This document shows positions 8,647 to 49,375 of a stretch of 64,000 nt of DNA, in pieces. The notes under the pieces were generated by a model that saw nothing but the letters and a program-made list of their open reading frames with translations, made no database searches and was not told where the DNA came from. Numbering within the stretch: position 1 is the stretch's first letter; each line of letters opens with the position of its first letter. This DNA comes from Microlunatus sagamiharensis (GTDB lineage: Bacteria > Actinomycetota > Actinomycetes > Propionibacteriales > Propionibacteriaceae). The DNA lies in contig NZ_LT629799.1 of the NCBI RefSeq assembly GCF_900105785.1, positions 3,720,001 through 3,784,000 on the forward strand, given 5' to 3'. The position numbers were made by a program, and so were the translations under genes.

Positions 8647-9789
8647 GTGCGGACACACCCACGCAGCACCGCGAGGGCGGGCTGGGTCGGCGGCCTGGCC
8701 GCTGCCGCCCTGGTGCTGGCCGGTTGCGGAACCGTCCCGGCCGGGCCCGTCGGCGCGGCCGAGACGCAGCCGCCGGCTGCGACCGAGGCCCCGACCAGCG
8801 CCACGGCGACGCCCGGTGCGACGCCGACGGAGGCGGGCCCATCGACCCCCAGCGCGAGCCCGACCACGAAGCCCGCGTCCGACAAGGCGGCGAGCACCAG
8901 GCCCGCGCTCCTGCTGGAGAAGGGCGACAAGGGCGAGAAGGTCCGCGACCTGCAGGTCCGGCTGCGCGACCTCGACTGGTACTCCGGCTCGATCACCGGG
9001 ACGTACGCCGCGAGCACGGTCACCGGGGTGAAGGGGTTCCAGGGCAAGCGCGGGCTGAAGAAGACGGGTTCGGTCGACGCGACGACCTGGAAGCAGCTGA
9101 CCAAGCGCACGTCGGCCTCGACGAAGGACGAGCGCCACAACGTGCTGCGCCCCGGCAAGGCGATCTACCGGCAGGGCTCGAGCGGCGACAAGGTGCGCGA
9201 CCTGCAGGCGCGGCTCAAGCAGATCGGCTGGTTCTCCGGCTCGGTGACCGGGACCTACGGCAGGGCGACGGCCAGCGGCGTGAAGGGGTTCCAGGGCAAG
9301 CGGGCCATCCCCGTCACCGGCGACGTCGACGCCCGGACCTGGAGCCGCCTCACCGCGATGACGCGCACGCCGACCGAGGACGCCAAGCACAACCGCACGC
9401 CGAAGCCGTCGAAGGCCGGGCTCGACAGCCGGTGCCTGACCGGCCGGGCGATCTGCATCAGCAAGAGCAGCAACTCGCTCACCTGGGTGGTCGACGGCAA
9501 GCCGCAGCTGCGCATGGACGTGCGGTTCGGCGCGGTCGGCACGCCGACGCGGGAGGGGACCTTCAGCATCCAGCGCAAGGAGCGCGACTGGACCTCGACG
9601 ATCTACCACTCGAAGATGCCGTACTCGATGTTCTTCTCGGGCGGCCAGGCCGTGCACTACAGCTCCGACTTCGCCGCCCGCGGCTACGCCGGCGCCTCGC
9701 ACGGCTGCGTGAACGTCCGCAACCTTCCCGCCCTCCAGACCCTGTTCGCCCAGGCCCGGACCGGTGACAAGGTCATCGTCTACCGCTGA
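8647..9789 (+). CDS. L,D-transpeptidase lipoprotein with two peptidoglycan-binding domains
   Basis: This 380-residue cell-wall enzyme has a signal peptide with lipobox LVLAGC near residue 27 and a Thr/Pro/Ala-rich linker. Two PG_binding_1 repeats follow (each with KVRDLQxRL, GSxTGTY and VKGFQGKR) near residues 95-160 and 180-240. The YkuD catalytic domain carries SHGCVNV, with Cys354 as nucleophile and His352. Such enzymes form 3-3 cross-links in peptidoglycan or attach proteins. The two binding repeats are close copies of each other at DNA level, with VKGFQGKR encoded almost identically, suggesting recent duplication. The stop lies inside the left arm of an inverted repeat. Confidence 0.92.
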   Translation: MRTHPRSTARAGWVGGLAAAALVLAGCGTVPAGPVGAAETQPPAATEAPTSATATPGATPTEAGPSTPSASPTTKPASDKAASTRPALLLEKGDKGEKVRDLQVRLRDLDWYSGSITGTYAASTVTGVKGFQGKRGLKKTGSVDATTWKQLTKRTSASTKDERHNVLRPGKAIYRQGSSGDKVRDLQARLKQIGWFSGSVTGTYGRATASGVKGFQGKRAIPVTGDVDARTWSRLTAMTRTPTEDAKHNRTPKPSKAGLDSRCLTGRAICISKSSNSLTWVVDGKPQLRMDVRFGAVGTPTREGTFSIQRKERDWTSTIYHSKMPYSMFFSGGQAVHYSSDFAARGYAGASHGCVNVRNLPALQTLFAQARTGDKVIVYR

Positions 9790-9842
9790 GAACTTCTCGC
9801 CCTGGAAGCACCGTCACGGTTCACCAGTGGCGAGAAGTTCTC
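9788..9842. repeat. Inverted repeat at the 3' end of the broken nuclease gene
   Basis: The arms GAGAACTTCTCGCC (9788-9801) and GGCGAGAAGTTCTC (9829-9842) are perfect complements. The left arm overlaps the stop of the L,D-transpeptidase gene and the right arm overlaps the last codons of the leftward nuclease gene. Bases 9808-9841 are also 28/34 identical, in direct orientation, to 10793-10826 on the other side of that gene. Confidence 0.9.
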
Positions 9843-10718
9843 TGACCGTCGCGACGAAGCCCTCGGGGTCGCCGAGGAGGTCGTCCCAGCAGAAACGTCT
9901 GATCGTCCAGCCGTCGCGCATCAAGGCGTTGGATCGCCGCAGGTCCGAGCGGAACGCGACTGCCCCGGAGTGGAAGGCGTAACCGTCGAGCTCGATGGCC
10001 AGTCTTCTGTCCGGGAACGCGATGTCGATCTCCACCGACCGGCCGCTGCTCAGCCTGACGACGAGGTTCGGCTCGAAACCAGTGATGCCGGCGTCCCTGA
10101 GCAGCGAGACAGCCAGCCGCTCGAGCTCGGAATGAGCGCGGCCGCCCGTGCGGGCCAGCAGGTCCGCATGGTTGAGCTGCCCCAGCATCCGGGATGGCGT
10201 GCCAGTGCGCGCTCGAGGTCGATCTGACGAACAGCGCGGGTCTGCTTGGCCCGATCGATCAGGGCGACGCCGGCTCCGGCGCGTCGGCGCTCGATGAGGG
10301 CGCTGGTACGCAGCACTGCGAGCGGCCGGCTCATCGTCAGGAGCGAGCGGTGACGCCAGCGGTCCTGCGGGTCGACGAAGGCCGCGCTCAGCTGCACCCG
10401 ATCAGTGCTTCGGCAGCGCGTCGGGCCGACGAACGACCAGCGGATCGGTGGGTCCTCGAGCACGCCCCACCACCAGGCGGCCGTCTCGTCCGCGAGCAGG
10501 ACATCGGGTCCGAGCCACAGCCTGGCCGCCCACAGGCCGGTCTCCACGAGGGGGACGGCGGCGTGCAGCCGGAAGACTCCGGGGTGCTCCCTGATCCACT
10601 CCTGCCGGGCGAGCAGCCCGGCGATCTCCCGGTCCGAGAGCCCGGCTTCCCGGGCCTGTGCGCGCGACACCGTCCCGGCCTGACGGAGGAGGTGCTGACG
10701 GACGAGTGCGTTCTCCAC
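9814..10718 (-). pseudogene. Frameshifted AbiEi-like/DUF559 endonuclease-domain gene
   Basis: Two overlapping leftward frames together make one protein of about 300 residues. The first (from GTG 10718) carries the AbiEi-type winged helix (RAQAREAGLSDREIAGLLA) and the middle region. The second (9814 to about 10188) carries the DUF559/Vsr-like nuclease core with VEIDIAFPDRRLAIELDGY. At 10188-10190 the frame shifts so that HPG should run on into MLGQLNHADLL; one missing base would explain it. The catalytic D...ExD pattern is intact in the second part. It is related in layout to the genes at 16542 and 48283. A sequencing error is the main alternative to a true pseudogene. Confidence 0.75.
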
Positions 10719-10792
10719 GTCCGGGTCATCAGGACCTGAGCCCCGGTCGTGCCGGGCCTGGCCGGATCTGTGCACAACTTCTTGCCGTCAGC

Positions 10793-10826
10793 GCACCGTG
10801 ACGGTGCACCGAGGGCGAGAACTTCT
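10793..10826. repeat. Direct-repeat partner flanking the broken nuclease gene
   Basis: This 34-base segment matches 9808-9841 at 28 positions in the same orientation. It begins with the palindrome GCACCGTGACGGTGC and ends in GGCGAGAACTTCT, overlapping the map stop codon. The two copies bracket the nuclease gene like cassette ends. Confidence 0.75.
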
Positions 10827-11592
10827 AGCCGCGCGAGGTGAGGACGAGCGGACCGTCCTCGGTGATGGCGATCGTGTGCTCGGAGTGGGCGCCGCGGGAG
10901 CCGTCGCGGCTGCGCAGCGTCCAGCCGTCGGCGTCGGTGTAGATCTTGTCCGTGCTCTCGCAGAACCAGGGCTCGATGGCGATGACCAGGCCCGGCTTGA
11001 GCGTGAGGCCGCGGCCGCGGCGGCCGTCGTTGGCGACGTGCGGGTCGCCGTGCATGGTGCGGCCGACGCCGTGGCCGCCGAAGTCGGTGTTGATCTTGTA
11101 CCCCGCGTGGTTGGCCACCCGGGCGATGGCGAAGGAGATGTCGCCGACCCGCGCGCCGGCCTGGGCGGCCTCGATGCCCGCGGCGAGCGCCTCCTGCGTG
11201 GTGTCGATCAGCCGCTGGTCCTGCTCGCGCACCTGCCCGACGACCACGCTGACCGCGGAGTCGGAGACCCAGCCGTCGACCGACGCGGCGAAGTCCACGC
11301 TCAGCAGGTCGCCGTCGGCGAGGACGTAGTCGTGGGGGAGGCCGTGCAGGACGGCGTCGTTGACCGAGGTGCACAGCACCTTGCCGAAGGGGCTGGCGCC
11401 GAAGGACGGGTGGTAGTCGATGTAGCAGGACTCCGCGCCGCGCTCGACGATCATCTCGTGGGCCAGCCGGTCGAGCTCGAGCAGGTTCACCCCGACGTCG
11501 GCCTTGGCGACCAGCGCCGTCAGCACGTCGGCGACGAACCGTCCGGCGGGGCGCATCTGCTCGATCTCGGCGGGGGTGCGGTACTCGATCAC
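10825..11592 (-). CDS. map: Methionine aminopeptidase, type I
   Basis: This 255-residue enzyme removes N-terminal methionine from new proteins in the cytosol. The five metal ligands are visible: Asp in LLSVDFAAS, Asp in SDSAVSV, His in GGHGVGRTMH, Glu in VIAIEPWF and Glu in AHSEHTIAI. The early His in CYIDYHPSFGASPFG is also kept. Length and absence of an SH3-like N-terminal extension fit the short type Ia form. The GTG start encodes MIEYRTPAEIEQMRPAGRFV, a typical beginning. Actinobacteria often carry two map genes; this copy is not in the ribosomal adk-map-infA cluster, so it is probably the stand-alone paralogue. Confidence 0.95.
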   Translation of the reverse strand: MIEYRTPAEIEQMRPAGRFVADVLTALVAKADVGVNLLELDRLAHEMIVERGAESCYIDYHPSFGASPFGKVLCTSVNDAVLHGLPHDYVLADGDLLSVDFAASVDGWVSDSAVSVVVGQVREQDQRLIDTTQEALAAGIEAAQAGARVGDISFAIARVANHAGYKINTDFGGHGVGRTMHGDPHVANDGRRGRGLTLKPGLVIAIEPWFCESTDKIYTDADGWTLRSRDGSRGAHSEHTIAITEDGPLVLTSRG

Positions 11593-11635
11593 GCCCGTGA
11601 TTCTGCCCCAGCGGCCAAGGTCCGAGCGCCGGCCG

Positions 11636-12331
11636 TCACGCCCAGATCGCCGCGCTCAGCCCGTACGGCACGCGCTGCGGCGGGTCCGGCAGGCTGACGG
11701 CCTCGCCGCGGAGCAGGCGGAGCGCGGTCCAGGCGACCGCCGCGGCGTCGACCACGTCGTCCGGTCCCGCCGACCCCGTGTCGCCGGTGAGGCGGGTGAG
11801 GTCGACGCCCGCGGCGGCCAGGAGGGCCACGCGCTCCTGCTGCCCGGCCCACGTCTTCTTCGCGTGCTGCGCCGGCCGGCCGGCCATCGTCGCGAACGTG
11901 ACCTCGGGGTGAACCTCGGCGACCCGGTCCTCCCCGCCACGGACCAGCTCGTCGACCTCCAGCACCTTGCCCCGCAGCCCCCAGGCCTGGATCGAGAACC
12001 CGCCCCCGCTGCGCTTCCGGCTCACTGCCACGCCCGTCGCGTGGTCGGCCACCTCGAGCGCCGCGCGGACGGGAGTGGTGAAGATCGACGAGCGTCGCCG
12101 CCCGAGCACCGCGGCCGCGAGGCGGTCGGCGTCGCGCCAGCCCTCGTCGAGCAGGCCGATCGGGATGTCGACGCCGACCCGCGCCACCGACCCGTCACGG
12201 TCGGCCAGCGCGAGCAGCGTGCGCAGGTCGGGTGCTGCGTAGGCCCGGGGTCCGTCGGGGTCCGGGGCCACGCCGACCCAGCCGTCGCGGCAGCCGTCGA
12301 CCCCCAGCACGCGCGTCGCTGTCACCGTCAC
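11636..12331 (-). CDS. DUF429 family protein
   Basis: This 231-residue protein of the DUF429 family is predicted to have an RNase H-like fold. Visible family signatures are VLGVDGCRDGWVGV at the start, VGVDIPIGLLDEG near residue 55, and the HPEVTFATMAG and DDVVDAAAVAWTA segments. The Asp residues in these motifs sit where nuclease-fold metal ligands would be, but activity is not established for the family. It runs leftward, 43 bases upstream of map and divergent from the monooxygenase at 12384. Confidence 0.8.
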   Translation of the reverse strand: MTVTATRVLGVDGCRDGWVGVAPDPDGPRAYAAPDLRTLLALADRDGSVARVGVDIPIGLLDEGWRDADRLAAAVLGRRRSSIFTTPVRAALEVADHATGVAVSRKRSGGGFSIQAWGLRGKVLEVDELVRGGEDRVAEVHPEVTFATMAGRPAQHAKKTWAGQQERVALLAAAGVDLTRLTGDTGSAGPDDVVDAAAVAWTALRLLRGEAVSLPDPPQRVPYGLSAAIWA

Positions 12332-12383
12332 CGCGCCGGTCTACCACCGGAATGACGGGCGGACGGACCGGGTTGCACCTGGC

Positions 12384-13436
12384 ATGAGCATCCGCCGGCT
12401 GTCCGTCCTCGACCTCATCCCCGTCCGCGACGGGCAGACCACGGGCCAGGCGCTGGCCGCGAGCGTGGCGCTGGCGAGGCGGGCGGAGTCGGCCGGCTTC
12501 CACCGCTACTGGGTCGCCGAGCACCACAACATGCCGGCCGTCGCCTCGACGAACCCGCCCGTCCTCATCGCCATGCTCGCCGGCGCGACCGAGCAGCTGC
12601 GGGTGGGCTCGGGCGGCATGATGCTGCCGAACCACGCCCCGCTCGTCGTCGCCGAGCAGTTTGCGCTGCTCGAGGCCGCGTACCCCGGTCGGATCGACCT
12701 CGGCATCGGCCGTGCGCCCGGCAGCGACCCGGTCACGAGCTGGGCCCTGCGCCACGGCGGCCCGCAGACCGGAGACGCCGACCGCTTCGGAGAGCACGTC
12801 GACAACCTCATCGCGATGATGGAGCCGGCCGGCGTCGGCCTCAGCCTCCAGGGCCGCTCGTACGGCCTGCGCGCCACGCCGCAGGCGGTCGGCCGCCCGA
12901 CCCCGTGGCTGCTCGGCTCGTCGGACTACTCCGCGCGGCTCGCCGCCGAGAAGGGGCTGCCGTACGTCTTCGCGCACCACTTCTCCGGCGACAGCACCGC
13001 CGAGGTGCTCGACCTCTACCGCAGCGCCTTCCGCCCCTCCGACGTCAGCCCGGCGCCGCAGACCTTCCTCACCGTCAACGTCGTCGTCGCCCCCACCCAG
13101 GAGGAGGCCGACCGGCTGGCCAAGCCGTACGTCCTGGCGATGGTCGCGCTGCGCACCGGCGGGGAGCTGCGCCCGCAGATCAGCGTCGAGGACGCCGCCG
13201 ACGTGCGGCTCCCGGAGTCCCACGCCGCGCTCGCCGCGCAGATGAGCGAGCGCTGGGTCGTCGGCACGCCCGAGACCGCGGCCCGCCAGCTCGAGGAGCT
13301 GGCCGACCACTTCGGCGTCGACGAGGTGATGGTCCACCCGGTCGCCGGCGCCTCGAACAGCGACCCGTTCGACCGCAACCCGGCCCGCGAGGAGAGCCTC
13401 GACCTGCTCGCCTCGGCGGTGTTCGCGACCGCCTGA
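12384..13436 (+). CDS. LLM-class flavin-dependent oxidoreductase, MsnO8-like
   Basis: This 350-residue luciferase-like monooxygenase has diagnostic strings SVLDLIPVRDGQT at the start, FHRYWVAEHHNMPAVASTNP, LRVGSGGMMLPNHAP and RIDLGIGRAPGSDP. These place it in the MsnO8/YtmO-like group whose natural substrates are mostly unknown. The ATG at 12384 follows a GC-rich region with only a weak ribosome site. The gene stands alone between a divergent DUF429 gene and a repeat element. It is a separate subfamily from the SsuD-like gene at 2812. Confidence 0.88.
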   Translation: MSIRRLSVLDLIPVRDGQTTGQALAASVALARRAESAGFHRYWVAEHHNMPAVASTNPPVLIAMLAGATEQLRVGSGGMMLPNHAPLVVAEQFALLEAAYPGRIDLGIGRAPGSDPVTSWALRHGGPQTGDADRFGEHVDNLIAMMEPAGVGLSLQGRSYGLRATPQAVGRPTPWLLGSSDYSARLAAEKGLPYVFAHHFSGDSTAEVLDLYRSAFRPSDVSPAPQTFLTVNVVVAPTQEEADRLAKPYVLAMVALRTGGELRPQISVEDAADVRLPESHAALAAQMSERWVVGTPETAARQLEELADHFGVDEVMVHPVAGASNSDPFDRNPAREESLDLLASAVFATA

Positions 13437-13443
13437 GCGGGCT

Positions 13444-13543
13444 GACGCTCCCTGAGCCTGTCGAAGGGCCTCGAAGAGGTCGGCGCTGTCCTAGGGAAGA
13501 ACGTCAACCCGTTCCGGGCCCTTCGACAGGCTCAGGGAGCGTC
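13444..13543. repeat. 27-base inverted repeat, also present alone at 54011
   Basis: Arms 13444-13470 and 13517-13543 are perfect reverse complements. The core is CCCTTCGACAGGCTCAGGG, a string I recognise as recurring in many high-GC bacterial genomes. A partial further copy (GGTTCAGGGAGCG) lies at 13559-13571, overlapping the xth stop. The element sits between convergent genes and may double as a terminator. Confidence 0.9.
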
Positions 13544-13560
13544 CTCGCACTTCTCGAGGT

Positions 13561-14325
13561 TCAGGGAGCGCTGGGCAGGGTCAGGTCGACCACCACCGGC
13601 GCGTGGTCGGAGGGCCCGGTGCCCTTGCGGGCCTCGCGGTCGACGTACGCGTCCTGGACCGTGACCGACGGGCTCAGCAGGACGTAGTCGATCCGCATGC
13701 CCAGGTCCTTGTGGAACATCCCGGCGCGGTAGTCCCAGTAGGTGAAGGGCCGGTCGTTCTTGCCCGGGCGCGCGGTGACGTCGACCAGGCCCCAGTCGAT
13801 CAGCGACTCGAGCGCCTCCCGCTCCGGCGGGGTCACGTGCGTGCTGCCCGAGAACTTGGCGATGTCCCACACGTCGGCGTCGGTGCGCGCGACGTTGAAG
13901 TCGCCCATGATCACCAGCGGCTGCGCCGGGTCCTGCTCGTCGAGGGTGGCGCGCAGCTGGGCGAACCACTCCAGCTTGTACGCGTAGTGCGGGTCGTCGA
14001 CCGAGCGCCCGTTGGGCACGTAGACGCTGACGGTCCGCAGCCCGCCGCAGTCCGCGGCGGCGTAGCGGGGCTCCTCCATCCCGGGCAGCTGCCGCGAGAC
14101 GGGCTCGAGGCCCACCCGGGAGAGGACGGCGACGCCGTTCCAGCGGCCGTCGCCGACGTGCATCACCTCGTAGCCGAGCTCGGCGACCTCCGCGGTCGGG
14201 AAGCCGGCCTCGTTGGTCTTGGTCTCCTGCAGCGCGACGACGTCGGGCTCGCGGGTCTGCAGCCAGTCGAGGAGGCGCGGGAGCCGCGCCCCGACCGAGT
14301 TCACGTTCCAGGTCGCGATGCGCAC
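13561..14325 (-). CDS. xth: Exodeoxyribonuclease III
   Basis: This 254-residue endonuclease/exonuclease/phosphatase-fold enzyme cleaves at abasic sites in base excision repair. Motifs run in order: IATWNVNSVGARLPRLLDWL, VVALQETKT (metal-binding Glu), the VYVPNG segment, VIMGDFNVARTDADVWD, RIDYVLLS and GPSDHAPVVVDL (catalytic His). The start is GTG at 14325 because IATWNVNS begins at residue 3; the open frame upstream is a shadow of the next gene. It is convergent with the gene at 12384 and 32 bases downstream of the molybdopterin oxidoreductase. Confidence 0.95.
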   Translation of the reverse strand: MRIATWNVNSVGARLPRLLDWLQTREPDVVALQETKTNEAGFPTAEVAELGYEVMHVGDGRWNGVAVLSRVGLEPVSRQLPGMEEPRYAAADCGGLRTVSVYVPNGRSVDDPHYAYKLEWFAQLRATLDEQDPAQPLVIMGDFNVARTDADVWDIAKFSGSTHVTPPEREALESLIDWGLVDVTARPGKNDRPFTYWDYRAGMFHKDLGMRIDYVLLSPSVTVQDAYVDREARKGTGPSDHAPVVVDLTLPSAP

Positions 14326-14357
14326 GCGCCCATCCTGCCCGGTCCGGGCAGGGTCGC

Positions 14358-15947: not shown

Positions 15948-16000
15948 AACGTCTACGCAGAACTGACCCCGGACGGCCTCCCCGGGGCTAGCGTGCCGCC

Positions 16001-16471
16001 ATGAGGCTGAGGTGCTCGTCCCTGCAGGCGTGCGCGCCCGACCGGCTCGCCGCCGAGCTCTCCCGACCCGTGCTGCTGTGCCGGATCGCGTGGCCGCTGC
16101 TCACCTTCACCCCGGTCGACCCGCCCGTGCTCGAGGAGCGGTGGACGACCAAGCCGTACGTCTTCGCGCTGCGCCTGGGCGGCCGGCTCGGGCTGGGGGA
16201 GCACACGATCGAGCCGCGCACCCCGACCCGGCCCGACGAGGTGTGGCACGACGCCGGGCACAGCGACCTCGTGCACGTCTGGGACCACCGGGTCGACCTC
16301 GCGGAGTTCTACGGGATGACCCGGTACACCGACGTCGTCGAGGTGCGCGCCGGGGCGCTGACGCCGGTGGCCTGGCTCTTCGCCCAGGTCTTCTACCGCC
16401 ACCGCCAGCGCCGCCTCAACCGCCTCGTGGCCCGCGGCCTGCTCGAGCGCCGGGAGCCCGCCGCACTCTGA
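16001..16471 (+). CDS. Conserved protein of unknown function
   Basis: This 156-residue protein begins MRLRCSSLQACAPDRLAAEL. Aromatic and beta-rich segments (HTIEPRTPTRPDEVWHDAGH, VWDHRVDLAEFYGMTRYTDV) and a C-terminal basic helix after WLFAQVFYRHRQRRLNRLV suggest a compact soluble fold, possibly of the START/SRPBCC type. No family is recognised with confidence. It is divergent from the molybdopterin oxidoreductase (53 bases between starts). Coding character and length support a real gene. Confidence 0.6.
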   Translation: MRLRCSSLQACAPDRLAAELSRPVLLCRIAWPLLTFTPVDPPVLEERWTTKPYVFALRLGGRLGLGEHTIEPRTPTRPDEVWHDAGHSDLVHVWDHRVDLAEFYGMTRYTDVVEVRAGALTPVAWLFAQVFYRHRQRRLNRLVARGLLERREPAAL

Positions 16472-16541
16472 GCCCGCGCCGACACCACAGGCGGGTTCTC
16501 GGACGACACCCCCGACAACACCCGCGTGACTTCATGGTGCC

Positions 16542-17420
16542 GTGCGCCTTCAGGACGAGGTTCGAGACGTCGTACGACGCGAGGGAGTCATCGCGCGGAA
16601 GGACCACCCCGAGCTGGCCGGGGCCATCAAGACGTTGGTGGGCCGTGGTGACCTGGTGCCGGTGCTGCCCGGGGTGTACGCCCGGCCAGAGGCCCACGAC
16701 CTCGGGACGAGGGTGCGGGCTCTGGTGCTGAAGGAGCCCAACGCAGTCGTGACGGGCGACGCCGCAGCCCGTCTGGTCTTCTGGCCGGAGCTGGCCGGGT
16801 CGACCGTCGAGGCCGCGGTGCCGTGGCAGCGTGTCGACCCGCCGGGCTTTCGCTTCTCGCGCCGGAAGGTCCCGGCCGAGCTGGTCGTGCAGCGCGGGCC
16901 GCTCAGACTCACCGATCCGGCTCTGACGGCGCTGGACCTGTGCGCCTCGCGCGGTGGAGACGGTATCGACCGGGCGCTGCGGGCGCGGGCGACGACGCTC
17001 GCCCGGATGCGTCGCGCCCTGGATCTGGCGCCGGGTCGAGCGGGCAACCGGGACCGTCGCTGGTTCCTGGTGGACTCGCGGGACGAGCCCTGGTCGGCGG
17101 CAGAGCGGCGGTGCCACCGCCTGCTGCGGCAGGCCCGGATCACGGGGTGGAGGAGCAACCTCCCGGTAGACGTGCGCGGCCGGCGCTACTACCTCGACGT
17201 CGCCTTCCCGCGGTTGCGCCTCGTCCTGGAGATCGACGGGCGCCTGCACGAGGACGAGCGCGAGGTCTTCGAGAACGACCGCCGGCGTCAGAACGACCTC
17301 GTCCTCGAGGGCTGGACCGTCCTGCGCTTCACCTGGCGCATGCTCGACGAACAACCACAGCTCGTGCTCGACCTCGTTCTGGAGGCCGTCGCTGCGCTTT
17401 CTAGCGCCAGTCGGGCGTAA
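16542..17420 (+). CDS. AbiEi-like / DUF559 endonuclease-domain protein
   Basis: This 292-residue protein has an N-terminal winged-helix-like region (about 1-90, with the AGAIKTLVGRGDLVPVLPGV segment typical of AbiEi-type domains). A variable middle leads to a C-terminal DUF559/Vsr-like nuclease core (about 195-285). The catalytic pattern is intact: LDVAFPRLRLVLEIDGRLHE supplies D...ExD, then FENDRRRQNDLVLEGWTVLRFTW. Members are annotated variously as AbiEi antitoxin-like or VSR-like proteins; biological activity is unproven. The GTG at 16542 is followed directly by the domain. The last codons form the left arm of an 18-base inverted repeat. It is the second of three such genes in the window and the best preserved. 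Confidence 0.75.
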   Translation: MRLQDEVRDVVRREGVIARKDHPELAGAIKTLVGRGDLVPVLPGVYARPEAHDLGTRVRALVLKEPNAVVTGDAAARLVFWPELAGSTVEAAVPWQRVDPPGFRFSRRKVPAELVVQRGPLRLTDPALTALDLCASRGGDGIDRALRARATTLARMRRALDLAPGRAGNRDRRWFLVDSRDEPWSAAERRCHRLLRQARITGWRSNLPVDVRGRRYYLDVAFPRLRLVLEIDGRLHEDEREVFENDRRRQNDLVLEGWTVLRFTWRMLDEQPQLVLDLVLEAVAALSSASRA

Positions 17421-17473
17421 GCCGCCACGCTGAGCGCTTGCCGCAGCCCAGAGGTCCGACTGGCGCTAGAAAG
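17397..17473. repeat. Inverted repeat overlapping the nuclease gene stop
   Basis: Arms 17397-17414 (CTTTCTAGCGCCAGTCGG) and 17456-17473 are perfect complements 41 bases apart. The left arm encodes the last residues of the nuclease gene (ending SSASRA) and the right arm ends nine bases from the convergent ABC-transporter stop. It probably also terminates both transcripts. Confidence 0.9.
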
Positions 17474-17481
17474 TGCAGTCG

Positions 17482-29481: not shown

Positions 29482-29548
29482 TCCGCCGAGAGGTAGGTTG
29501 CCGCGCGAATCCGGCCTCGAAAGTCGCGGCAACCTACCGCTCGGCGGA
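29482..29548. repeat. 24-base inverted repeat
   Basis: Arms 29482-29505 and 29525-29548 are complementary at 23 of 24 positions with a 19-base spacer. The core is GGTAGGTTGCCGCG. It lies between the convergent ankyrin and YibE/F genes and may terminate both. The design matches other paired repeats in this window. Confidence 0.88.
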
Positions 29549-43236: not shown

Positions 43237-43258
43237 GCGCTGGCGGGGTGGGGCCCGG

Positions 43259-44182
43259 TCAGACCAGGGCGCGGGAGCACTGGGCGAGCTCGCCCAGCGC
43301 GTCGGTGAGCGGGACCCGCGGCGCCCAGCCCCAGCCGCGGGCGCGGCCGGTCTCCAGCTGGCCGGTCCAGGCCGGCCCGTCCTCCCAGACCGGCTCGACG
43401 CCGACCGCGTCGGCGACCGTCTGCAGGTAGTCGCGCTGCGTGGCCGGCTCGCCCGCGACGTTGACGGCGGTGCACCCGCCCGCGACGGGACCGTGCGCGA
43501 CGTCGGCCTCGGCGCCGATCCGCCCGGTGGCGACGTCGGCGAGCAGGTCCACGAGGTCGTCGACGTGCACCCAGGCGAAGGTCGCGTCCGCGACGCGGTG
43601 CCGCTCGGCCTCGTCGTCGCGGATCCCGGTCGGGCGCAGGGTGTTCCAGACCGAGCTGTCGCCCGCCCCGAGGATGGCCGGCGGGCGCACGAGCACCCGG
43701 GTGAGGCCGTCGACCTCGGCGAGCGCGAGGTCGACGTCGCGCTTGGTCGCCCCGTACGCGTCCGCGTCGTCGCCCACGAGCGCGGACGACTCGTCGACGT
43801 CGCCCACGCCGGGGCTGCGGTCGTAGACGGCGGCGGTCGAGACGTGCACGAGCCGGGCGACGCCGGCGTCGCGCGCGGCCTGCGCCAGGCGCACCGTGTC
43901 CTCGACGCCGACGCGCTGCTGCACGTCCAGCGCGGAGCCCATCGGGTGGACCGTGGTGACCACCGCGTCCGCGCCCTCCACGACCTGCGCGGCGAAGGCG
44001 GCGTCACCGAAGTCGCCGACGTGCTCCTCGAGACCCTCCTGCGCCCGCGCGGTGCCCGGGCGCCGGACGACCGCCCGCACCGTCGCCCCGCGGCGTACGA
44101 GGGCGTCGCTCACGCGCGCACCGACGAACCCGTTCGCACCGGTCACCACCACGACGGGGCCGGGCCCCTGCTCTGACGTCAT
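43259..44182 (-). CDS. NAD-dependent epimerase/dehydratase-like protein
   Basis: This 307-residue extended SDR has the cofactor motif VTGANGFVGARV (near residues 13-24), VSTAAVYDRSP with the active-site Ser/Thr region, and YGATK (catalytic Tyr and Lys). It is most like 3-beta-hydroxysteroid-dehydrogenase/isomerase or dihydroflavonol reductase-type proteins that act on small alcohols or sugars; substrate unknown. It is convergent with the YhgE/Pip gene (22 bases between stops) and follows the 44245 membrane gene on the same strand. Confidence 0.83.
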   Translation of the reverse strand: MTSEQGPGPVVVVTGANGFVGARVSDALVRRGATVRAVVRRPGTARAQEGLEEHVGDFGDAAFAAQVVEGADAVVTTVHPMGSALDVQQRVGVEDTVRLAQAARDAGVARLVHVSTAAVYDRSPGVGDVDESSALVGDDADAYGATKRDVDLALAEVDGLTRVLVRPPAILGAGDSSVWNTLRPTGIRDDEAERHRVADATFAWVHVDDLVDLLADVATGRIGAEADVAHGPVAGGCTAVNVAGEPATQRDYLQTVADAVGVEPVWEDGPAWTGQLETGRARGWGWAPRVPLTDALGELAQCSRALV

Positions 44183-44244
44183 GACGCCAGCCTGGCACCT
44201 GCGTCCGAGCCCTCCCTGGGCCGTACGCCGGTCGGGACCGTCGC

Positions 44245-44565
44245 TCAGCCGCCCTGGACCTCGCGGCGCTCGTCCAGGGCGCTGCGCCAGGCGCGGAGGT
44301 CGCGCGGCACGTCGACCGCGAGCCGCCAGGTGATCATGCCGAGCACGACGGCGGCCGGAGCGCCGACGACGAGGCCCACGACGTCGGCTGTGAGCGGCCG
44401 GCCCGGCTCGCCCTCACCGAGGATGCCGACGAGGCCGGACGCGGCCAGGCCGAGCGCGCCGAGCGCCACGAGCCCGCTCAGCACGGCGCCGGGCAGCCAG
44501 CAGGTCGACAGGACCTGGAGGCGCCGCGCGGGCACCGGCGTGCGGGGCGACGTGGTCGTGGTCAC
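44245..44565 (-). CDS. Small membrane protein of unknown function
   Basis: This 106-residue protein has two predicted transmembrane helices (about 24-50 and 62-83) and charged ends; the C-terminus is DERREVQGG. No family is recognised. It lies between the broken HIT gene and the epimerase, same strand. The start is GTG at 44565. Confidence 0.6.
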   Translation of the reverse strand: MTTTTSPRTPVPARRLQVLSTCWLPGAVLSGLVALGALGLAASGLVGILGEGEPGRPLTADVVGLVVGAPAAVVLGMITWRLAVDVPRDLRAWRSALDERREVQGG

Positions 44566-44606
44566 GACGGGAGCGTAGGCCCGGACGGGTCCACCCGCGC
44601 CAGGGC

Positions 44607-44953
44607 TCAGCGCAGCGGTGCGCCCGAGGTGACGTGGACGTGCAGGTGCTCTAGTCCTGGTAGGCCCCGAGGTTGGTCAGGACGGCGGCTGCGCCCTCGC
44701 GCTCCTCGACCTCGCGGGCGAGCCGCTGGACCACGCCGAGCAGCGCGCGCACGTCGGCCTCGTCCTCGTCGACGAGCGTGGTCAGCGAGGCCAGGTGGCG
44801 CTTGGGCACGACGACCAGGTGCACCGGCCAGGAGGGCCGGGTGTGGTGGAAGGCGAGCACGCGGTCGTCCTCGTGGACGACGTCCAGCTCCTGGCGCCGC
44901 GGGATCGCGACGTCGCAGGAGAAGTCGGAGCCCTCGGACGCCGCCTCGCCCAC
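44607..44953 (-). pseudogene. HIT-family gene frameshifted at the catalytic triad
   Basis: From 44953 the frame encodes a normal HIT fold (DVAIPRRQELDVVHEDDRVLAF, HLVVVPKRHLASL) and ends at a TAG (44651-44653) straight after LTNLGAYQD. In another frame the next codons read EHLHVHVTSGAPLR to a TGA at 44607. That is the catalytic HxHxH motif and normal C-terminus. A single missing base near 44650 explains the break. The intact protein would hydrolyse nucleoside phosphoramidates (HINT-like). A sequencing error or a true mutation are both possible. Confidence 0.8.
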
Positions 44954-44985
44954 GACGCCGATGCTAGGCCGAGGGGCCCGGCGGT

Positions 44986-45495
44986 TCAGCGCGTGCGGGC
45001 GCCCAGCCTGCGCACCTCGTCGAGCACGCCGGGGACGGCGGCCTCGACCGCGGCGAGCGTCTCCTCGAAGCCCTCCGGCCCGCCGTACCAGGGGTCCGGG
45101 AGCCCGGAACCCTCCGGCGCCTGCGGGTCGAAGTCGCTCAGCAGCGACAGGTTGTCGGCGTCCGGGGCGATCCGCAGCATCCGGTCGACGTGGATCGGCT
45201 CGGCGGCGATCACCAGGTCGGCGCCCGCGATCTCGTCCGCGGTGACCTGGTGCGCCGCGTGGTCGTCCGCGCGGTAGCCGTGCGCGCTCAGCACGCGCCG
45301 GGCCCGGGGGTCGATGGGCGCCCCGATCTCCTCGCGGCTGGTCGCGGCGCTGGTGAACTCCACGCCCTCGAGGCCCGCGTCCGCCGCCATCCGCTCGGCG
45401 ACGCGCTCGGCGATGGGGGAGCGGCAGATGTTGCCCCAGCAGACGAAGACGACCCGGACCGGCCCGGACCCCGTGGAACCGCTCGAGGCGGTCAC
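44986..45495 (-). CDS. Low-molecular-weight protein-tyrosine phosphatase
   Basis: This 169-residue enzyme has the P-loop VCWGNICRSP with nucleophile Cys19 and Arg25, and the catalytic acid Asp in LPDPWYGGPEGFEETL. It dephosphorylates protein tyrosines. An N-terminal Ser/Gly-rich 11-residue extension precedes the fold. GTG 45495 overlaps the upstream membrane-protein stop (GTGA). It is followed by the broken HIT gene. Confidence 0.93.
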   Translation of the reverse strand: MTASSGSTGSGPVRVVFVCWGNICRSPIAERVAERMAADAGLEGVEFTSAATSREEIGAPIDPRARRVLSAHGYRADDHAAHQVTADEIAGADLVIAAEPIHVDRMLRIAPDADNLSLLSDFDPQAPEGSGLPDPWYGGPEGFEETLAAVEAAVPGVLDEVRRLGARTR

Positions 45496-45899
45496 GCCCG
45501 GGTGCCGCGCAGGCGGCGCGGCGGCTGGTTGCGGTCGGGCAGGAAGGCGTTCAGCACGAAGCTCACGACCGACACGATGATCGCGCCCAGCAGCGCGGTC
45601 CAGAAGCCGTCGACGTACCAGCCGATGCCGATCTGGCCGGCCACCCACGACGTGAGCAGCAGCATCAGCGCGTTGATGACGAGCAGGAAGAGCCCGAGCG
45701 TCAGCAGCACGATGCAGGCGGTGACCGCGGTGAAGACGGGCTTCACGACCGCGTTGACCACGCCGAAGATCAGAGCGACGACGAGCAGGACGAGCACCTT
45801 GTCACCGGTGCCGGACGCCGTCAGCTGGATGCCGGCGAGGAGCCAGGTGGCGACGGCGAGGGCGGCCGCGTTGGCGACGAGCCGGAGGAGGAAGCGCAC
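45492..45899 (-). CDS. Phage-holin-IV-superfamily-like membrane protein
   Basis: This 135-residue protein has four predicted transmembrane helices, and an IFGVVNAVVKPVFTAVT segment is typical of the Phage_holin_4_2 (YvlD) family. In bacteria these are membrane proteins of unknown role, not necessarily phage-derived. It ends DRNQPPRRLRGTRA and overlaps the phosphatase gene by GTGA. GTG 45899 has GGAAG nine bases before it. Confidence 0.88.
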   Translation of the reverse strand: MRFLLRLVANAAALAVATWLLAGIQLTASGTGDKVLVLLVVALIFGVVNAVVKPVFTAVTACIVLLTLGLFLLVINALMLLLTSWVAGQIGIGWYVDGFWTALLGAIIVSVVSFVLNAFLPDRNQPPRRLRGTRA

Positions 45900-46279
45900 G
45901 CGACCATTCTTCCAGCCCTGCCCGTCGCCGGACCGGCGTCGTCGCCGTGCTGGACGAGGGTGTCCGAGGCCCCGCGGCGGCCCGCCGCGACCGTGAGGTC
46001 GGACGGGCCACCGGGTCTCTCGGCCCCGGCCGGGTCGACTCGGCGTCCCCCGACGCGCGCCTGTCGCCAGGCTGGGGCAGCTCCGTGGACCGAGGTGAAG
46101 CAGCGAGACGCTCGTCAACGTACGCGAACCGTGACCGCGAGGGGCGCTTCTCGGGGCGCGTCTCGTCGGAGGGCCTGAATTCACACTTCCCTGCCCCCGC
46201 TGGGATCCAGGGCACCGCGGGGGAGCGGTGCAGGACCGTGGGAGCAGCCGCCAGGGGGCCGAGGCCTAGGGTCGAGGGC
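45900..46279. other. Intergenic region between divergent genes
   Basis: There are 380 bases with no supported gene; open frames across it have shadow composition. It must hold divergent promoters. TAGGGT at 46267-46272, eight bases before the ATG at 46280, could be a -10 for a near-leaderless message. I see no repeat or clear operator. Confidence 0.5.
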
Positions 46280-47146
46280 ATGCACATCGTCGTCACGGGT
46301 GGGTCCGGCAAGCTCGGCGGGGTCGTGGTGGAGCACCTGCTCTCCCTCGGCCACCAGGTCACGAACGTCGACGCGAAGCCGGTGCCCGACGGGGGCCTCG
46401 GCGCGGGCGCGCGGTTCCTGCGGATCGACCTGACCGACTACGGCCAGGTCGTCGAGGCGCTCACCGGGATCGACGACGCGTACACGTCCGTGGACGCCGT
46501 CGTCCACCTCGCCGCGATCCCGGCGCCGGGGCTGACGGCCAACGCCGCGACGTTCGGCAACAACGTGCCCTCGACGTTCCACGTCTTCCAGGCCGCCAAG
46601 CTGGCGGGCATCCACAAGGTCGTCTGGGCCTCGAGCGAGACGGTGCTCGGGCTGCCCTTCGACGCCCCGCCCGCGTACGTGCCCGTCGACGAGGCCGTGC
46701 ACGAGCCCAACTCGACCTACTCGCTCGGCAAGGTCGTCGAGGAGGCGATGGCGGCGCAGTTCTGCCGCTGGGACCCGGGGCTGTCGATGGTCGGGCTGCG
46801 TTTCTCCAACGTCATGCGCGTCGAGGACTACGCCGACTTCGGCGGCTACACCGCCGACCAGCGCCGGTTCAACCTCTGGTCCTACATCGACGCGCGCGAC
46901 GCGGCCCAGGCCGTCGAGCTCGCGCTCGCGTACGAGCCGCGGGGCATGGAGGTCTTCGTCATCGCCTCGCCCGACGTGGTGCCGCACGTGCCGGTCGAGC
47001 AGCTGCTCCGGGAGCGGTTCGGGGAGGTCGAGCACACCCGCGAGCTCGGCGAGTACGAGTCGCCGCTGAGCATCGACAAGGCCCGTTCCCTGCTCGGCTA
47101 CGACCCCCAGCACAGCTGGCGCGACCACACGGAGCAGGGAGCCTGA
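46280..47146 (+). CDS. NAD-dependent epimerase/dehydratase-family protein
   Basis: This 288-residue extended SDR has VTGGSGKLGGVVVEHLL at the N-terminus, a VVHLAAIPAPG segment near residue 75, active-site Ser in VWASSETVLGL and YSLGK as the YxxxK motif. The family includes sugar-nucleotide epimerases and uronate dehydrogenases; the early GGSGKLG form and length are close to uronate-dehydrogenase-like proteins. Substrate is not determined. It stands upstream of the aldo/keto reductase with 46 bases between. Confidence 0.86.
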   Translation: MHIVVTGGSGKLGGVVVEHLLSLGHQVTNVDAKPVPDGGLGAGARFLRIDLTDYGQVVEALTGIDDAYTSVDAVVHLAAIPAPGLTANAATFGNNVPSTFHVFQAAKLAGIHKVVWASSETVLGLPFDAPPAYVPVDEAVHEPNSTYSLGKVVEEAMAAQFCRWDPGLSMVGLRFSNVMRVEDYADFGGYTADQRRFNLWSYIDARDAAQAVELALAYEPRGMEVFVIASPDVVPHVPVEQLLRERFGEVEHTRELGEYESPLSIDKARSLLGYDPQHSWRDHTEQGA

Positions 47147-47192
47147 CGAGGGCGCTCCGCAGGTGGTCCGCCGCGTGAGGTAGGCAGGAGCC

Positions 47193-48167
47193 ATGGACTA
47201 CGTGAAGCTCGGCAGCACCGGCCTGGACGTCTCCCCGATCTGCCTCGGCTGCATGACGTACGGCGACCCCGCCCGCGGCAACCACGCCTGGTCGCTGCCC
47301 GAGGACCAGTCGCGCCCGTTCTTCGAGCGGGCCGTCGAGGCGGGGATCAACTTCTTCGACACCGCCGACGCCTACTCCGACGGCTCCAGCGAGGAGATCA
47401 CCGGACGCGCGCTGAAGAAGCTCATCCCGCGCGAGGACCTCGTGCTCGCGACGAAGGTCTTCAACCCGATGCGCCCCGGCCGACCTAACGGCCGCGGCCT
47501 GTCGCGCAAGGCGATCCTCACGGGCATCGACGCCTCGCTGACCCGGCTCGGCATGGACCACGTGGACCTCTACCAGATCCACCGCTGGGACTACGGCACG
47601 CCGATCGAGGAGACGATGGAGGCCCTCCACGACGTCGTGAAGTCGGGCAAGGCCCGCTACATCGGCGCCTCCTCGATGTACGCGTGGCAGTTCCAGAAGG
47701 CCCAGAACATCGCGCTCACCAACGGCTGGACGCCCTTCGTGACGATGCAGGACCACTACAACCTCCTCGCCCGCGAGGAGGAGCGCGAGATGCTGCCGTA
47801 CTGCCTCGACTCCGGCGTCGGCGTCATCCCCTGGAGCCCGCTGGCCCGCGGCAAGCTCACCCGCGCCTGGGACTCCGAGACGAGCCGCAGCGAGACCGAC
47901 GAGTTCGGCAAGACGCTCTACGCCGACACCGACCGCGAGATCGTCCAGGCCGTGCTCGACGTGGCGCAGGCCCGCGGCGCGGCCCCGGCGAGCGTCGCCC
48001 TCGCCTGGGTCATGCGCCACCCGGCGGTGTCCTCGCCCATCGTCGGCGCCTCCAAGCCTCACCACCTCGACGACGCCCTCGCCGCGATCGACCTCGAGCT
48101 CACCGACGACGAGGTCGCGACCCTCGAGGCCTCCTACACCCCGCGCGACAACTCCGGGTTCCAGTGA
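47193..48167 (+). CDS. Aldo/keto reductase
   Basis: This 324-residue TIM-barrel NADPH oxidoreductase has the catalytic tetrad Asp and Tyr in FFDTADAYSDG, Lys in LATKVFNP and His in YQIHRWD. The group with MTYGDPARGNHAWSLPED near residue 26 (YhdN/YajO-like) reduces sugar-like aldehydes. It likely shares a transcript with the epimerase-like gene. A strong hairpin repeat lies 14 bases after its stop. Confidence 0.93.
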   Translation: MDYVKLGSTGLDVSPICLGCMTYGDPARGNHAWSLPEDQSRPFFERAVEAGINFFDTADAYSDGSSEEITGRALKKLIPREDLVLATKVFNPMRPGRPNGRGLSRKAILTGIDASLTRLGMDHVDLYQIHRWDYGTPIEETMEALHDVVKSGKARYIGASSMYAWQFQKAQNIALTNGWTPFVTMQDHYNLLAREEEREMLPYCLDSGVGVIPWSPLARGKLTRAWDSETSRSETDEFGKTLYADTDREIVQAVLDVAQARGAAPASVALAWVMRHPAVSSPIVGASKPHHLDDALAAIDLELTDDEVATLEASYTPRDNSGFQ

Positions 48168-48180
48168 GCCGCTGAGCCCG

Positions 48181-48269
48181 GACCTCGCACCCCTTCTCGC
48201 TCCTCGCACCCTTTCCGGCTCTTCGCACCGGGTCTGCCCGGTGCGAAGAGCGACAAGGGGTGCGAGGTC
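48181..48269. repeat. Nested inverted repeats at the 3' end of the third nuclease gene
   Basis: Outer arms are 48181-48195 (GACCTCGCACCCCTT) and 48255-48269. Inner arms are 48218-48232 (GCTCTTCGCACCGGG) and 48237-48251 with a four-base loop, all perfectly complementary. It lies between the aldo/keto reductase stop and the leftward nuclease stop, and its right half is nearly repeated at 49324-49375. Confidence 0.92.
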
Positions 48270-48282
48270 GCGTGACACGGGG

Positions 48283-49194
48283 TCAGGCCATCGGACGGCC
48301 GATCGCGAACGCGGCTCGCAGCCGCTGGGCCAACCTCTCCGGGTGATCCAGGTCCATCCAGGTCCAGCGCACGACGACCCAGCCGAGGCGTCGGATCGCG
48401 TCCTCGCGGAGCTTCTCCGACCACAGCACCTCCTCCAGGTCGGCCTTCGCGCCGAGCGCGCGCCCGTACTTGACCCGTCCGTCGAACTCGCCCACCACGC
48501 CGAGCGCCGCCCAGCCGAGGTCGACGCGCGCGACGAAGGCGCCGGCAGCGTCGTGGAGCACGAGCTGCGGCTCCGGAGCAGGGACGCCGACCTGCGCCAG
48601 GAGGACCCGGCTCACCGACTCGCCAGGGCTCTCCGACCTGGCGTCGAGGAAGGCGAGGGCCCGCCGGGCCGCCGCGACGCCGTGGCGTCCTGCCGCGTGC
48701 TCGACGGCCCCGACGAGGGCGGCGAGCGGTACGCCCGTGCGGAGGACCGCGTCCCCGAGCGTGACGTTCGTCGTCATCGGATGCGCCCGCGCGACGTCGA
48801 CGAATGTCCGAGGCACCGTCGTCAACGTGATGCCGTCACGGCTGGTGACCTCGTTCGGGGCCAGGGGCGTGCCGTGGACCTGCACCCAGCGTCGAGCGCG
48901 TCCGCCGCCTTCACGGTCGCGCGTCACGTGGACGCGCGAGAGGTCCGCGTACGGGACCGGGAGACCGTGGACGACCGCCGCTGACACGTGGCTGACCACA
49001 GCGCCAGCGCCGATCTGGCCGGTCGTCGCCTCGACGAGCCGTCGGTGGGCGGCGGTGCGGTCGAGCTCAACAGCGGACGAGACGTAGGCGCCCCGCCGTA
49101 CGGGCACGAGCGCCCCGGCACGCCGGAGCCGACGGATCTCGTCAGCCGCGAAGCCGTTCCGAAGGAGCTGGGCGTGGGTCTTGACCTCGGTCAC
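48283..49194 (-). CDS. AbiEi-like / DUF559 endonuclease-domain protein
   Basis: This 303-residue protein has an N-terminal winged helix (HAQLLRNGFAADEIRRLRRA, VPVRRGAYV) and a middle domain typical of AbiEi-like proteins. The C-terminal DUF559/Vsr-like core has VARVDLGWAALGVVGEFDG (D...ExD), then SEKLREDAIRRLGWVVVRWTW. It is intact and the third such gene in the window, but only distantly similar to the others. Start GTG 49194. It is bracketed by two copies of the same palindromic repeat (48218-48267 and 49326-49375). Function unproven: restriction-like nuclease, antitoxin-like regulator or selfish endonuclease are options. Confidence 0.78.
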   Translation of the reverse strand: MTEVKTHAQLLRNGFAADEIRRLRRAGALVPVRRGAYVSSAVELDRTAAHRRLVEATTGQIGAGAVVSHVSAAVVHGLPVPYADLSRVHVTRDREGGGRARRWVQVHGTPLAPNEVTSRDGITLTTVPRTFVDVARAHPMTTNVTLGDAVLRTGVPLAALVGAVEHAAGRHGVAAARRALAFLDARSESPGESVSRVLLAQVGVPAPEPQLVLHDAAGAFVARVDLGWAALGVVGEFDGRVKYGRALGAKADLEEVLWSEKLREDAIRRLGWVVVRWTWMDLDHPERLAQRLRAAFAIGRPMA

Positions 49195-49323
49195 GCGCCG
49201 AGCCGACCACGCTTCTCGCTCCTCCGCACCACCCGGAACCGCGACCTGTGGACAAGCCCGGCCCGTTCATCGACCTGTGGATGGCCGGCCGCCGCGCCCT
49301 GATCCGGTCGTTGCACCTCTTCT

Positions 49324-49375
49324 CGCTCTTCGCACCGTGCAGACCCGGTGCGAAGAGCGATAGAGGGTGCGAGGA
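49324..49375. repeat. Palindromic repeat upstream of the third nuclease gene
   Basis: The arms CGCTCTTCGCACCG (49324-49337) and CGGTGCGAAGAGCG (49346-49359) are perfect complements. The segment through GGGTGCGAGG is a close direct copy of 48218-48267. A weaker related string, CTTCTCGCTCCTCCGCACC, lies at 49210-49228. Confidence 0.88.

What the first reader, a model, noticed from the sequence alone, without database searches (positions are those of the whole stretch)
9788..49375. Family of nuclease genes each paired with its own palindromic repeat: candidate undescribed mobile cassette
Three genes with the same layout (AbiEi-like winged helix plus DUF559/Vsr-like nuclease core) lie at 9814, 16542 and 48283. 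Each has a strong, perfectly matched inverted repeat at its 3' end (9788-9842, 17397-17473, 48181-48269), and in the first two one arm overlaps the last codons. The repeats are unrelated in sequence between copies but alike in design. Copies one and three also have a second repeat copy on their 5' side. Gene-less repeats of the same design occur at 4006, 13444, 29482, 57335 and 57494. This would fit an element in which a nuclease recognises or spreads its own flanking palindrome and leaves solo remnants, somewhat like REP/RAYT pairs but with a Vsr-like enzyme. The link between enzyme and repeat is inference.
Basis: partly seen in the sequence, partly recalled or inferred. Interest (0 to 1): 0.72.

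Follow-up and report, generated by a model that had tools for sequence, protein, structure and literature searches.

The report
Nuclease genes with private dispersed palindromes
Many actinobacteria carry a gene for a nuclease-like protein bracketed by two copies of its own palindromic DNA repeat, with further copies scattered in the same genome, which looks like a new kind of enzyme-plus-repeat selfish system resembling, but not related to, the known REP/RAYT pairs.

Summary
The best case is copy 3 (48283-49194), an AbiEi-like winged helix fused to a Vsr-like nuclease domain. Relatives ("type B") were compared in 41 loci of its genus (Microlunatus) and family. In 37 of 41 the gene is bracketed by two matching copies of a palindrome, against 3 of 357 neighbouring genes and 2 of 684 anchors. 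A wider, slightly overlapping set gave 49 of 76. The palindromes differ between loci but share a skeleton, GCRCC-N14-GCRCC-N3-TR|YA and its mirror image. Searched back, all 150 listed matches (of 459) fell in the palindrome's own genome, many far from the gene. No RAYT-type transposase was found in 20 genus genomes, and no AbiEii toxin gene adjoins. The gene-less repeat at 4006 belongs to a frameshifted type-B gene elsewhere in the same genome. So the enzyme-repeat link is established by association; binding, cutting and copying are inferred. Copy 2's family shows a weaker, mostly 3'-only association. The searches run found no prior description.

The parts
48283..49194 (-). Type-B enzyme gene (copy 3), 303 aa: N-terminal AbiEi-like winged helix plus middle domain, C-terminal Vsr-like nuclease domain (E192, D225, E236, D238, K242, E260-E264 region invariant in the 40-member alignment)
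48181..48269 (.). 3' palindrome of copy 3 (IR3); five further copies at four other places of the genome, no enzyme detected there
49305..49393 (.). 5' palindrome of copy 3 (IR3b; 33-nt arms at 49305-49378), inverted copy of IR3
48179..49405 (.). Whole unit palindrome-gene-palindrome: flanks 89% identical to Microlunatus flavus (G017) up to 48178 and from 49406; between them a 51% identical enzyme with another palindrome
4006..4101. Solo palindrome with the type-B skeleton; its family (11 listed copies at 8 places, this one included) brackets a frameshifted type-B gene at about 1681.8-1683.0 kb of the same genome (L373)
9814..10775 (-). Copy 1: AbiEi/MTES_1575-type gene, frameshifted; the two frames overlap at 10050-10188
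9788..9842 (.). 3' palindrome of copy 1
10776..10826 (.). 5' palindrome of copy 1 (76-78% identical to the 3' one)
16542..17420 (+). Copy 2: type-A DUF559 gene, 292 aa
17392..17478 (.). 3' palindrome of copy 2, overlapping the last codons; no other copy listed in the genome (40 of 304 candidates scored)
57494..57554 (.). Palindrome 77% identical over 61 nt to the one that overlaps the 3' end of another DUF559 gene of this genome (L004)
13444..13543 (.). Palindrome of a high-copy dispersed family (CCTGAGCCTGTCGAAGGGC type); no partner enzyme found
29482..29548 (.). Palindrome of a small dispersed family (five copies seen in this genome, this one included); no partner enzyme found
57335..57438 (.). 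Palindrome with one listed relative in the genome (2606649); no partner enzyme found

Best explanation
Copy 3 and its relatives are two-part genetic elements: a chromosomal enzyme gene held between two copies of a palindrome, and a population of the same palindrome spread by that enzyme. Proposed working: several protomers bind GCRCC half-sites through the AbiEi-like winged helix (two half-sites 19 bp apart on each side of the centre). This places the Vsr-like nuclease at the TR|YA centre, where it nicks or cuts, perhaps on an extruded hairpin. Repair or copying of the cut palindrome then seeds new copies elsewhere. The enzyme stays in place, is inherited mainly vertically and diverges quickly together with its palindrome, so each genome ends up with private families. 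Shown: gene-palindrome pairing, own-genome dispersal, shared skeleton, invariant catalytic-type residues, no RAYT found. Inferred: binding, cutting at the centre, enzyme-driven copying, vertical inheritance (no tree was made).
For: Both-side matching repeats in 37 of 41 type-B loci vs 3 of 357 neighbouring genes and 2 of 90 convergent ones and 2 of 684 anchors; self-match ranks first against 40 other loci in 38 of 41. Wider set: 49 of 76 vs 1 of 210 anchors, ranking first in 45 of 76. Own-genome dispersal: 150 of 150 listed rows on the diagonal, 15.7 expected if rows were spread evenly over the query (150 of 459 matches listed, both strands counted apart). Skeleton: C at position 9 in 108 of 108 half-palindromes, G at 10 in 93%, again at 28/29 (88%, 80%); background palindromes 46% and 44% at 9/10. 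TRYA core in 34 of 60 centres vs 11 of 185 control centres. Enzyme identity tracks palindrome similarity, Mantel r 0.24, p 0.0006, 36 loci. Compensatory changes in the G022 family stem. Twenty-two invariant residues in 40 proteins. Fold: AbiEi antitoxin and Rv2827c (E 7e-6 to 5e-4); I-Bth0305I homing endonuclease and Vsr for the C-terminal half, not significant by E-value. No Y1 transposase in 20 genus genomes. No enzyme in 52 fetched solo stretches.
Against: No biochemistry; no target-site duplication or clean single insertion seen. One of four IR3 places is shared with G017, whose enzyme at the copy-3 site has another palindrome. The Mantel correlation is weak and not corrected for host relatedness. 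In other families the skeleton is looser (C9 72%, G10 58%, but C14 80%). Compensatory changes could come from fold-back copying rather than selection. 4 of 41 type-B loci, and 27 of 76 in the wider set, lack the flank pair at this threshold.
Confidence: 0.62

Rival explanations
1. DNA-binding regulator with many operators: the protein is an AbiEi-type autoregulator, the flanking palindromes are its operators, and the scattered copies are a regulon or chromosome-organising sites. The nuclease domain is secondary.
For: AbiEi and Rv2827c bind inverted repeats in their own promoters (PMC7319586, abstract read). The N-terminal fold matches. The upstream matching repeat usually lies within about 60-260 nt of the start.
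Against: A matching downstream copy exists in 37 of 41 loci. Scattered copies share long sequence including much of the spacers, not just a motif. The nuclease residues are invariant. No toxin partner: no neighbour family in more than 4 of 41 loci, and none of 16 AbiEii genes in the genus lies near a type-B gene.
Confidence: 0.2
2. Homing-type selfish gene: the enzyme cuts an empty palindrome and the gene, with its two palindromes, is copied in by recombination. Solo palindromes are target sites.
For: C-terminal half like the Vsr-type homing endonuclease I-Bth0305I (Foldseek E 0.62, TM 0.64 on the target). The same site is filled with different enzyme/palindrome pairs in G000 versus G014/G017. 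G006 has three solo palindromes of its own L102 family at the enzyme-less equivalent site.
Against: Both palindromes flanking the gene are complete in many loci, so the occupied site would still be a target. No genome was seen with near-identical enzymes in several places (highest pair 68.5% among 40).
Confidence: 0.13
3. The palindromes are ordinary bidirectional terminators or generic repeats between convergent genes, and the association is coincidental.
For: All three window copies have a convergent neighbour. 3' inverted repeats are only about twice as common as at other convergent genes (16 of 41 vs 18 of 90).
Against: Matching repeats on both sides: 37 of 41 vs 2 of 90 convergent control genes. 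Own-genome families, 150 of 150 listed rows. Common skeleton.
Confidence: 0.02
4. The palindromes are REP elements moved by a RAYT (Y1 HUH transposase), and the Vsr-like gene is a bystander.
For: Overall resemblance to REP families.
Against: PF01797 found in 0 of 20 genus genomes and in 5 of 14 control genomes including E. coli (some genus assemblies are 83-97% complete, and the three genomes used from other genera of the family were not searched). The bracketed gene is the Vsr-like one.
Confidence: 0.03

Closest known systems
REP/REPIN-RAYT (TnpA-REP) systems
   Same: An enzyme gene bracketed by palindromes, non-autonomous dispersed copies in the same genome, and enzyme-repeat co-evolution (PMC3733652 passages, PMC8266576 abstract). 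One family per enzyme and largely vertical inheritance are recalled for RAYTs.
   Different: Protein is a winged helix plus Vsr-like domain, not a Y1 HUH transposase. Palindromes have two GCRCC half-sites 19 bp apart per arm and a TR|YA centre; no GTAG foot in the profile. Found in Actinomycetota.
AbiEi antitoxins of AbiE toxin-antitoxin systems (including Rv2827c)
   Same: N-terminal winged helix and fold; binding to inverted repeats is reported for that family (PMC7319586 abstract).
   Different: C-terminal half is a nuclease-like domain. No adjacent toxin gene. Matching palindromes also lie downstream and elsewhere.
Vsr-fold homing endonuclease I-Bth0305I; Vsr/DUF559 endonucleases such as Caulobacter VsrA (PMC12907096 passages)
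   Same: Catalytic-domain resemblance and acidic/lysine core.
   Different: No recurrent neighbour such as a cytosine methyltransferase; tied to its own dispersed palindromes.
CGTC-tagged REPs without known transposase (PMC3733652)
   Same: Dispersed palindromes whose mobilising enzyme is not a known RAYT.
   Different: Reported from Proteobacteria and four other phyla without any partner gene; different repeat design.

Membership tests
REP/RAYT (REPtron) | Y1 HUH tyrosine transposase (RAYT) is the associated enzyme | tested here: not met
   0 of 20 genus genomes have PF01797, controls ring in 5 of 14; the bracketed protein is AbiEi plus Vsr-like
REP/RAYT (REPtron) | Enzyme gene bracketed by its palindromes | tested here: met
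   37 of 41 loci; 49 of 76 in the wider, slightly overlapping set
REP/RAYT (REPtron) | Same palindrome dispersed as solo copies in the same genome | tested here: met
REP/RAYT (REPtron) | GTAG (or CGTC) tetranucleotide at one end of the palindrome | tested here: inconclusive
   No such column in the symmetric profile of 54 palindromes out to 44 nt, but element ends were not defined base by base
REP/RAYT (REPtron) | Enzyme cleaves its cognate repeat in vitro | not testable with these tools
   Needs purified protein
AbiE toxin-antitoxin | AbiEi-like N-terminal winged helix | tested here: met
   AbiEi_4 in 23 of 40 members at E<=0.01; 1zel and 6y8q are the top fold matches
AbiE toxin-antitoxin | Adjacent AbiEii/DUF1814 toxin gene | tested here: not met
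   PF08843 found in 7 of 20 genus genomes (16 places), none in the window's genome and none within 200 kb of a type-B gene listed; no recurrent neighbour family
Vsr repair endonuclease | Linked cytosine methyltransferase | tested here: not met
   No neighbour family within 3 kb in more than 4 of 41 loci; methyltransferases were not searched for by name and unlinked ones are not excluded
Homing endonuclease | Vsr/EDxHD-type catalytic fold | tested here: inconclusive
   I-Bth0305I TM 0.64 on the target but Foldseek E 0.62
Homing endonuclease | Gene interrupts its own target; empty allele is cut | tested here: inconclusive
   Enzyme-less equivalents of the copy-3 site in G006 and G011 hold other repeats, not a clean empty palindrome
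Classical insertion sequence | Target-site duplication and several copies of the gene per genome | tested here: inconclusive
   No duplication seen by eye at 16 and 9 aligned copies; highest identity between two type-B proteins 68.5% among 40

The most novel reading that the evidence does not exclude
A second, independent invention of the REP system: in Actinomycetota, proteins joining an AbiEi-like winged helix to a Vsr-like nuclease maintain and spread their own private palindrome populations, with repeat recognition re-evolving so fast that neighbouring species use different palindromes at the same chromosomal site. Several DUF559 subfamilies (both-side repeats in 6 of 13 non-type-A loci) appear to do the same with other repeat designs, so one nuclease superfamily may drive much of the unexplained dispersed palindromic DNA of high-GC bacteria.
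Probability: 0.6. Interest if true: 0.9.

Novelty: categorically new. Interest (0 to 1): 0.85.

Why it matters
Dispersed palindromes in bacteria are commonly ascribed to RAYT transposases or left without a mover; one survey states that CGTC repeats apparently lack a dedicated transposase (PMC3733652, passages read). Here a large, functionally unassigned gene family comes with its own repeats. That gives it a testable substrate, gives some orphan repeats a candidate owner, and offers dozens of natural enzyme-site pairs of changing specificity.

Tried and rejected
Generic terminator/convergent-gene explanation: rejected for type B by real-gene controls, though 3' inverted repeats alone are only about twofold enriched over convergent genes. 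The genes in that control were called by a home-made GC3 rule, and copies 1 and 2 of the window were not removed from it. RAYT explanation: not supported. AbiE toxin-antitoxin: no adjacent partner. Plasmid or phage carriage: 0 phage records and 5 plasmid records with partial, <60% identical matches. Partner for the 13444, 29482 and 57335 repeats: none beside any type-B locus checked; the 13444 repeat lies within 130 nt of two type-A genes. Clean empty sites: attempted at the copy-3 site and at solo places; they show turnover but no base-exact insertion. A first tally of the 'GC at 9/10' test had an indexing slip on the right half; only the symmetric per-position profile of that call is used. 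In one search a one-base offset spoiled protein identities; one search replaces them. One search gave no copies, apparently because BLAST did not take the scoring values; one search replaces it. The 6 of 13 used a wider upstream window and had no control of its own.

Rows dropped: L093 has no clean start and was left out of the protein set, so 40 proteins; 36 loci with flank score >=45 and a protein entered the Mantel test. 4 of 80 genome-contig loci had flanks too short. The 4 that repeat genomes of the first set stayed in the 76 and were removed; 24 palindromes were sent, but the home genome of one (L110, G003) was not among the 11 searched; 27 candidates per genome were scored and 150 of 459 matches listed. 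One search scored 40 of 304 candidates. Type A: 30 of the 54 matches came as loci and were tested, plus L048; one of these (L191) ran off its locus. Three long DUF559-bearing frames (L345-L347) were left out.

Papers: PMC3733652 and PMC12907096 passages; PMC7319586 and PMC8266576 abstract and outline; others listing only. 'Not in print' rests in the held open-access library only. Recalled, from no call: general knowledge of PD-(D/E)XK motifs, and of RAYT inheritance.
Full report
What is in the window. The window lies at 3,720,001-3,784,000 of a 4.41-Mb single-contig genome of the genus Microlunatus. Copies 1-3 exist. Copy 1 is split between two frames; copies 2 and 3 are intact. The own genome has at least ten AbiEi/DUF559-type genes, of which three are frameshifted (copy 1; L006; L373).

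The repeats are dispersed families. Searching the window's repeats (and the one beside L003) against the own genome gave 111 matches, with 40 of 304 candidates scored. The 4006 and 13444 repeats have many copies. The copy-3 repeat has five further copies at four places. The copy-1 and copy-2 repeats had none listed beyond their genes. No enzyme was detected in the twelve fetched regions around solo repeats of this genome, nor in 40 short stretches around solo repeats of three other genomes, with 40 type-B proteins and copies 1-3 as queries. Copies 1-3 as queries do miss distant DUF559 genes such as L004, so 'no enzyme' means none of these kinds.

The enzyme-repeat link. Relatives of copy 3 ('type B') occur in 42 of 57 related genomes at E<=1e-20. 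In 41 loci (40 fetched plus the window) the 350 nt before the gene were compared with the end of the gene and 310 nt after it. The two sides of the same gene match better than any other gene's flank in 38 of 41, with score >=45 in 37 of 41. Controls: 2 of 684 arbitrary anchors, 3 of 357 called genes in the same loci, 2 of 90 genes with a convergent neighbour. The simpler test, an inverted repeat downstream, is much less specific: 16 of 41 vs 37 of 357 and 18 of 90. A wider set from named genomes (Nocardia, Rhodococcus, Pseudonocardia, Geodermatophilus and others) gave 49 of 76 vs 1 of 210, ranking first in 45 of 76; four of those 76 repeat genomes of the first set.

Private to the genome. 24 such palindromes were searched back against 11 genomes. 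All 150 listed matches, of 459, fell in the palindrome's own genome; 15.7 would be expected if rows were spread evenly. The rows include the copies beside the genes and count the two strands of a palindrome apart, but many lie far from the gene. In fetched stretches one family of G006 has 62 match places including sub-arrays, one of G010 has 16, one of G022 has 9, each count including the copies beside the enzyme. Among close relatives the separation is near but not complete.

Common skeleton. Aligned on their centres, 54 palindromes from the first set have C at position 9 in all 108 halves, G at 10 in 93%, the same pair again at 28/29 (88% and 80%), mostly CC at 6-7 and 25-26, and T-R at the centre. 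This reads GCRCC-N14-GCRCC-N3-TR|YA followed by its mirror image. In 54 background palindromes C and G reach 46% and 44% at 9 and 10. TRYA lies at 34 of 60 centres vs 11 of 185 control centres. The window's 4006, 48181 and 49305 repeats have the GC pair at 9/10. In the wider set the skeleton is looser (C9 72%, G10 58%, C14 80%). Enzyme identity correlates weakly but significantly with palindrome similarity (Mantel r 0.24, p 0.0006, 36 loci; no correction for host relatedness). In the G022 family six stem pairs change on both sides and 95% of cells stay paired (nine sequences), so the hairpin symmetry is kept, by selection or by fold-back copying.

A gene-less repeat finds its gene. The 4006 family brackets, at about 1,681.8-1,683.0 kb, a gene whose two halves match type-B proteins in two different frames. 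The 57494 repeat resembles the palindrome at the 3' end of another DUF559 gene, L004 (77% over 61 nt); no matching 5' copy was found there (score 35).

The enzyme. In the 40-member alignment 22 positions are invariant, including E192, D225, E236, D238, K242, E260, K261, R263 and E264. AbiEi_4 is matched by 23 of 40. The predicted structure is confident (pLDDT 92.7). Foldseek's significant matches are Rv2827c and an AbiEi antitoxin. The nuclease half resembles I-Bth0305I and Vsr, with TM 0.45-0.64 on those chains but E-values of 0.6-1.4. A sequence-profile search of the PDB found nothing convincing.

Site history. At the copy-3 site the flanks of G017 are 89% identical, and G014 aligns at 80% across the whole region, gene included. 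Their enzymes are 51-53% identical to copy 3 and 66% to each other, and their palindromes differ from copy 3's. The break in similarity to G017 coincides with the outer edges of the two palindromes. G006 and G011 lack the enzyme there; G006 has three solo palindromes instead, which match its own L102 family and none of the other palindromes tested. Four species carry a type-B gene beside an rpoC-like frame (rpoC recognised by eye). At four solo places of the copy-3 repeat, G017 has it at one and lacks it at three. This is turnover, not proof of transposition.

How far it extends. Copy 2's family (type A): 3' inverted repeat in 8 of 31 loci, both-side match in 4 of 31. Other DUF559 genes: both-side match in 6 of 13 non-type-A loci, with a wider window and no control of its own. 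So the phenomenon is not limited to type B but is weaker or different elsewhere.

What it is not. No RAYT-type transposase was found in 20 genus genomes. No recurrent partner gene, and the AbiEii toxin family, present in 7 of 20 genus genomes but not in the window's own, is not near any listed type-B gene. No phage match and only five partial plasmid matches.

Conclusion. An enzyme-palindrome system that resembles REP/RAYT in genomic anatomy but fails its defining feature, the HUH enzyme. Pairing, dispersal and skeleton are shown. Binding, cutting and copying are inferred. I rate it categorically new because no known kind in the searches made combines this enzyme with its own repeats; a reader who groups by analogy would call it a new variant of REPtrons.

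Noticed in passing
window 13444-13543 and 53995-54037; many places in the genome: A CCTGAGCCTGTCGAAGGGC palindrome family has the most listed copies here and also occurs in other genus members, but no enzyme gene was found bracketed by it; it lies beside two type-A genes.
   Followed up: partly
L369, L351, L367, L368: Other DUF559-type genes have long repeats or arrays on both sides, e.g. repeated AACTCATCAGAACGCGAGTT around the L369 gene.
   Followed up: no
L365 and L366: Two genes related to copy 1 in different genomes share a flank motif with TATCCACA, inverted on the two sides, unlike type B where flanks are private.
   Followed up: no
L087, L091, L098, L099: A site beside an rpoC-like frame holds a type-B gene in four species, with palindromes that are not all alike, suggesting a preferred or safe site.
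   Followed up: partly
G017:C5:71170-71254: G017 keeps one copy of the copy-3 type repeat although its enzyme at the copy-3 site has another palindrome: perhaps an orphan repeat.
   Followed up: partly
copy 1 (9814-10775), L006, L373: At least three of the genome's ten or so AbiEi/DUF559 genes are frameshifted, as a gain-and-decay family would show.
   Followed up: no
type-A loci L165, L048, L193: Type-A 3' palindromes have variable arms but a loop that in these three contains GCTGAGCG or a near variant.
   Followed up: no
L374 (own genome, about 154 kb): Another AbiEi-type gene of this genome has a matching inverted repeat on both sides (score 50).
   Followed up: no
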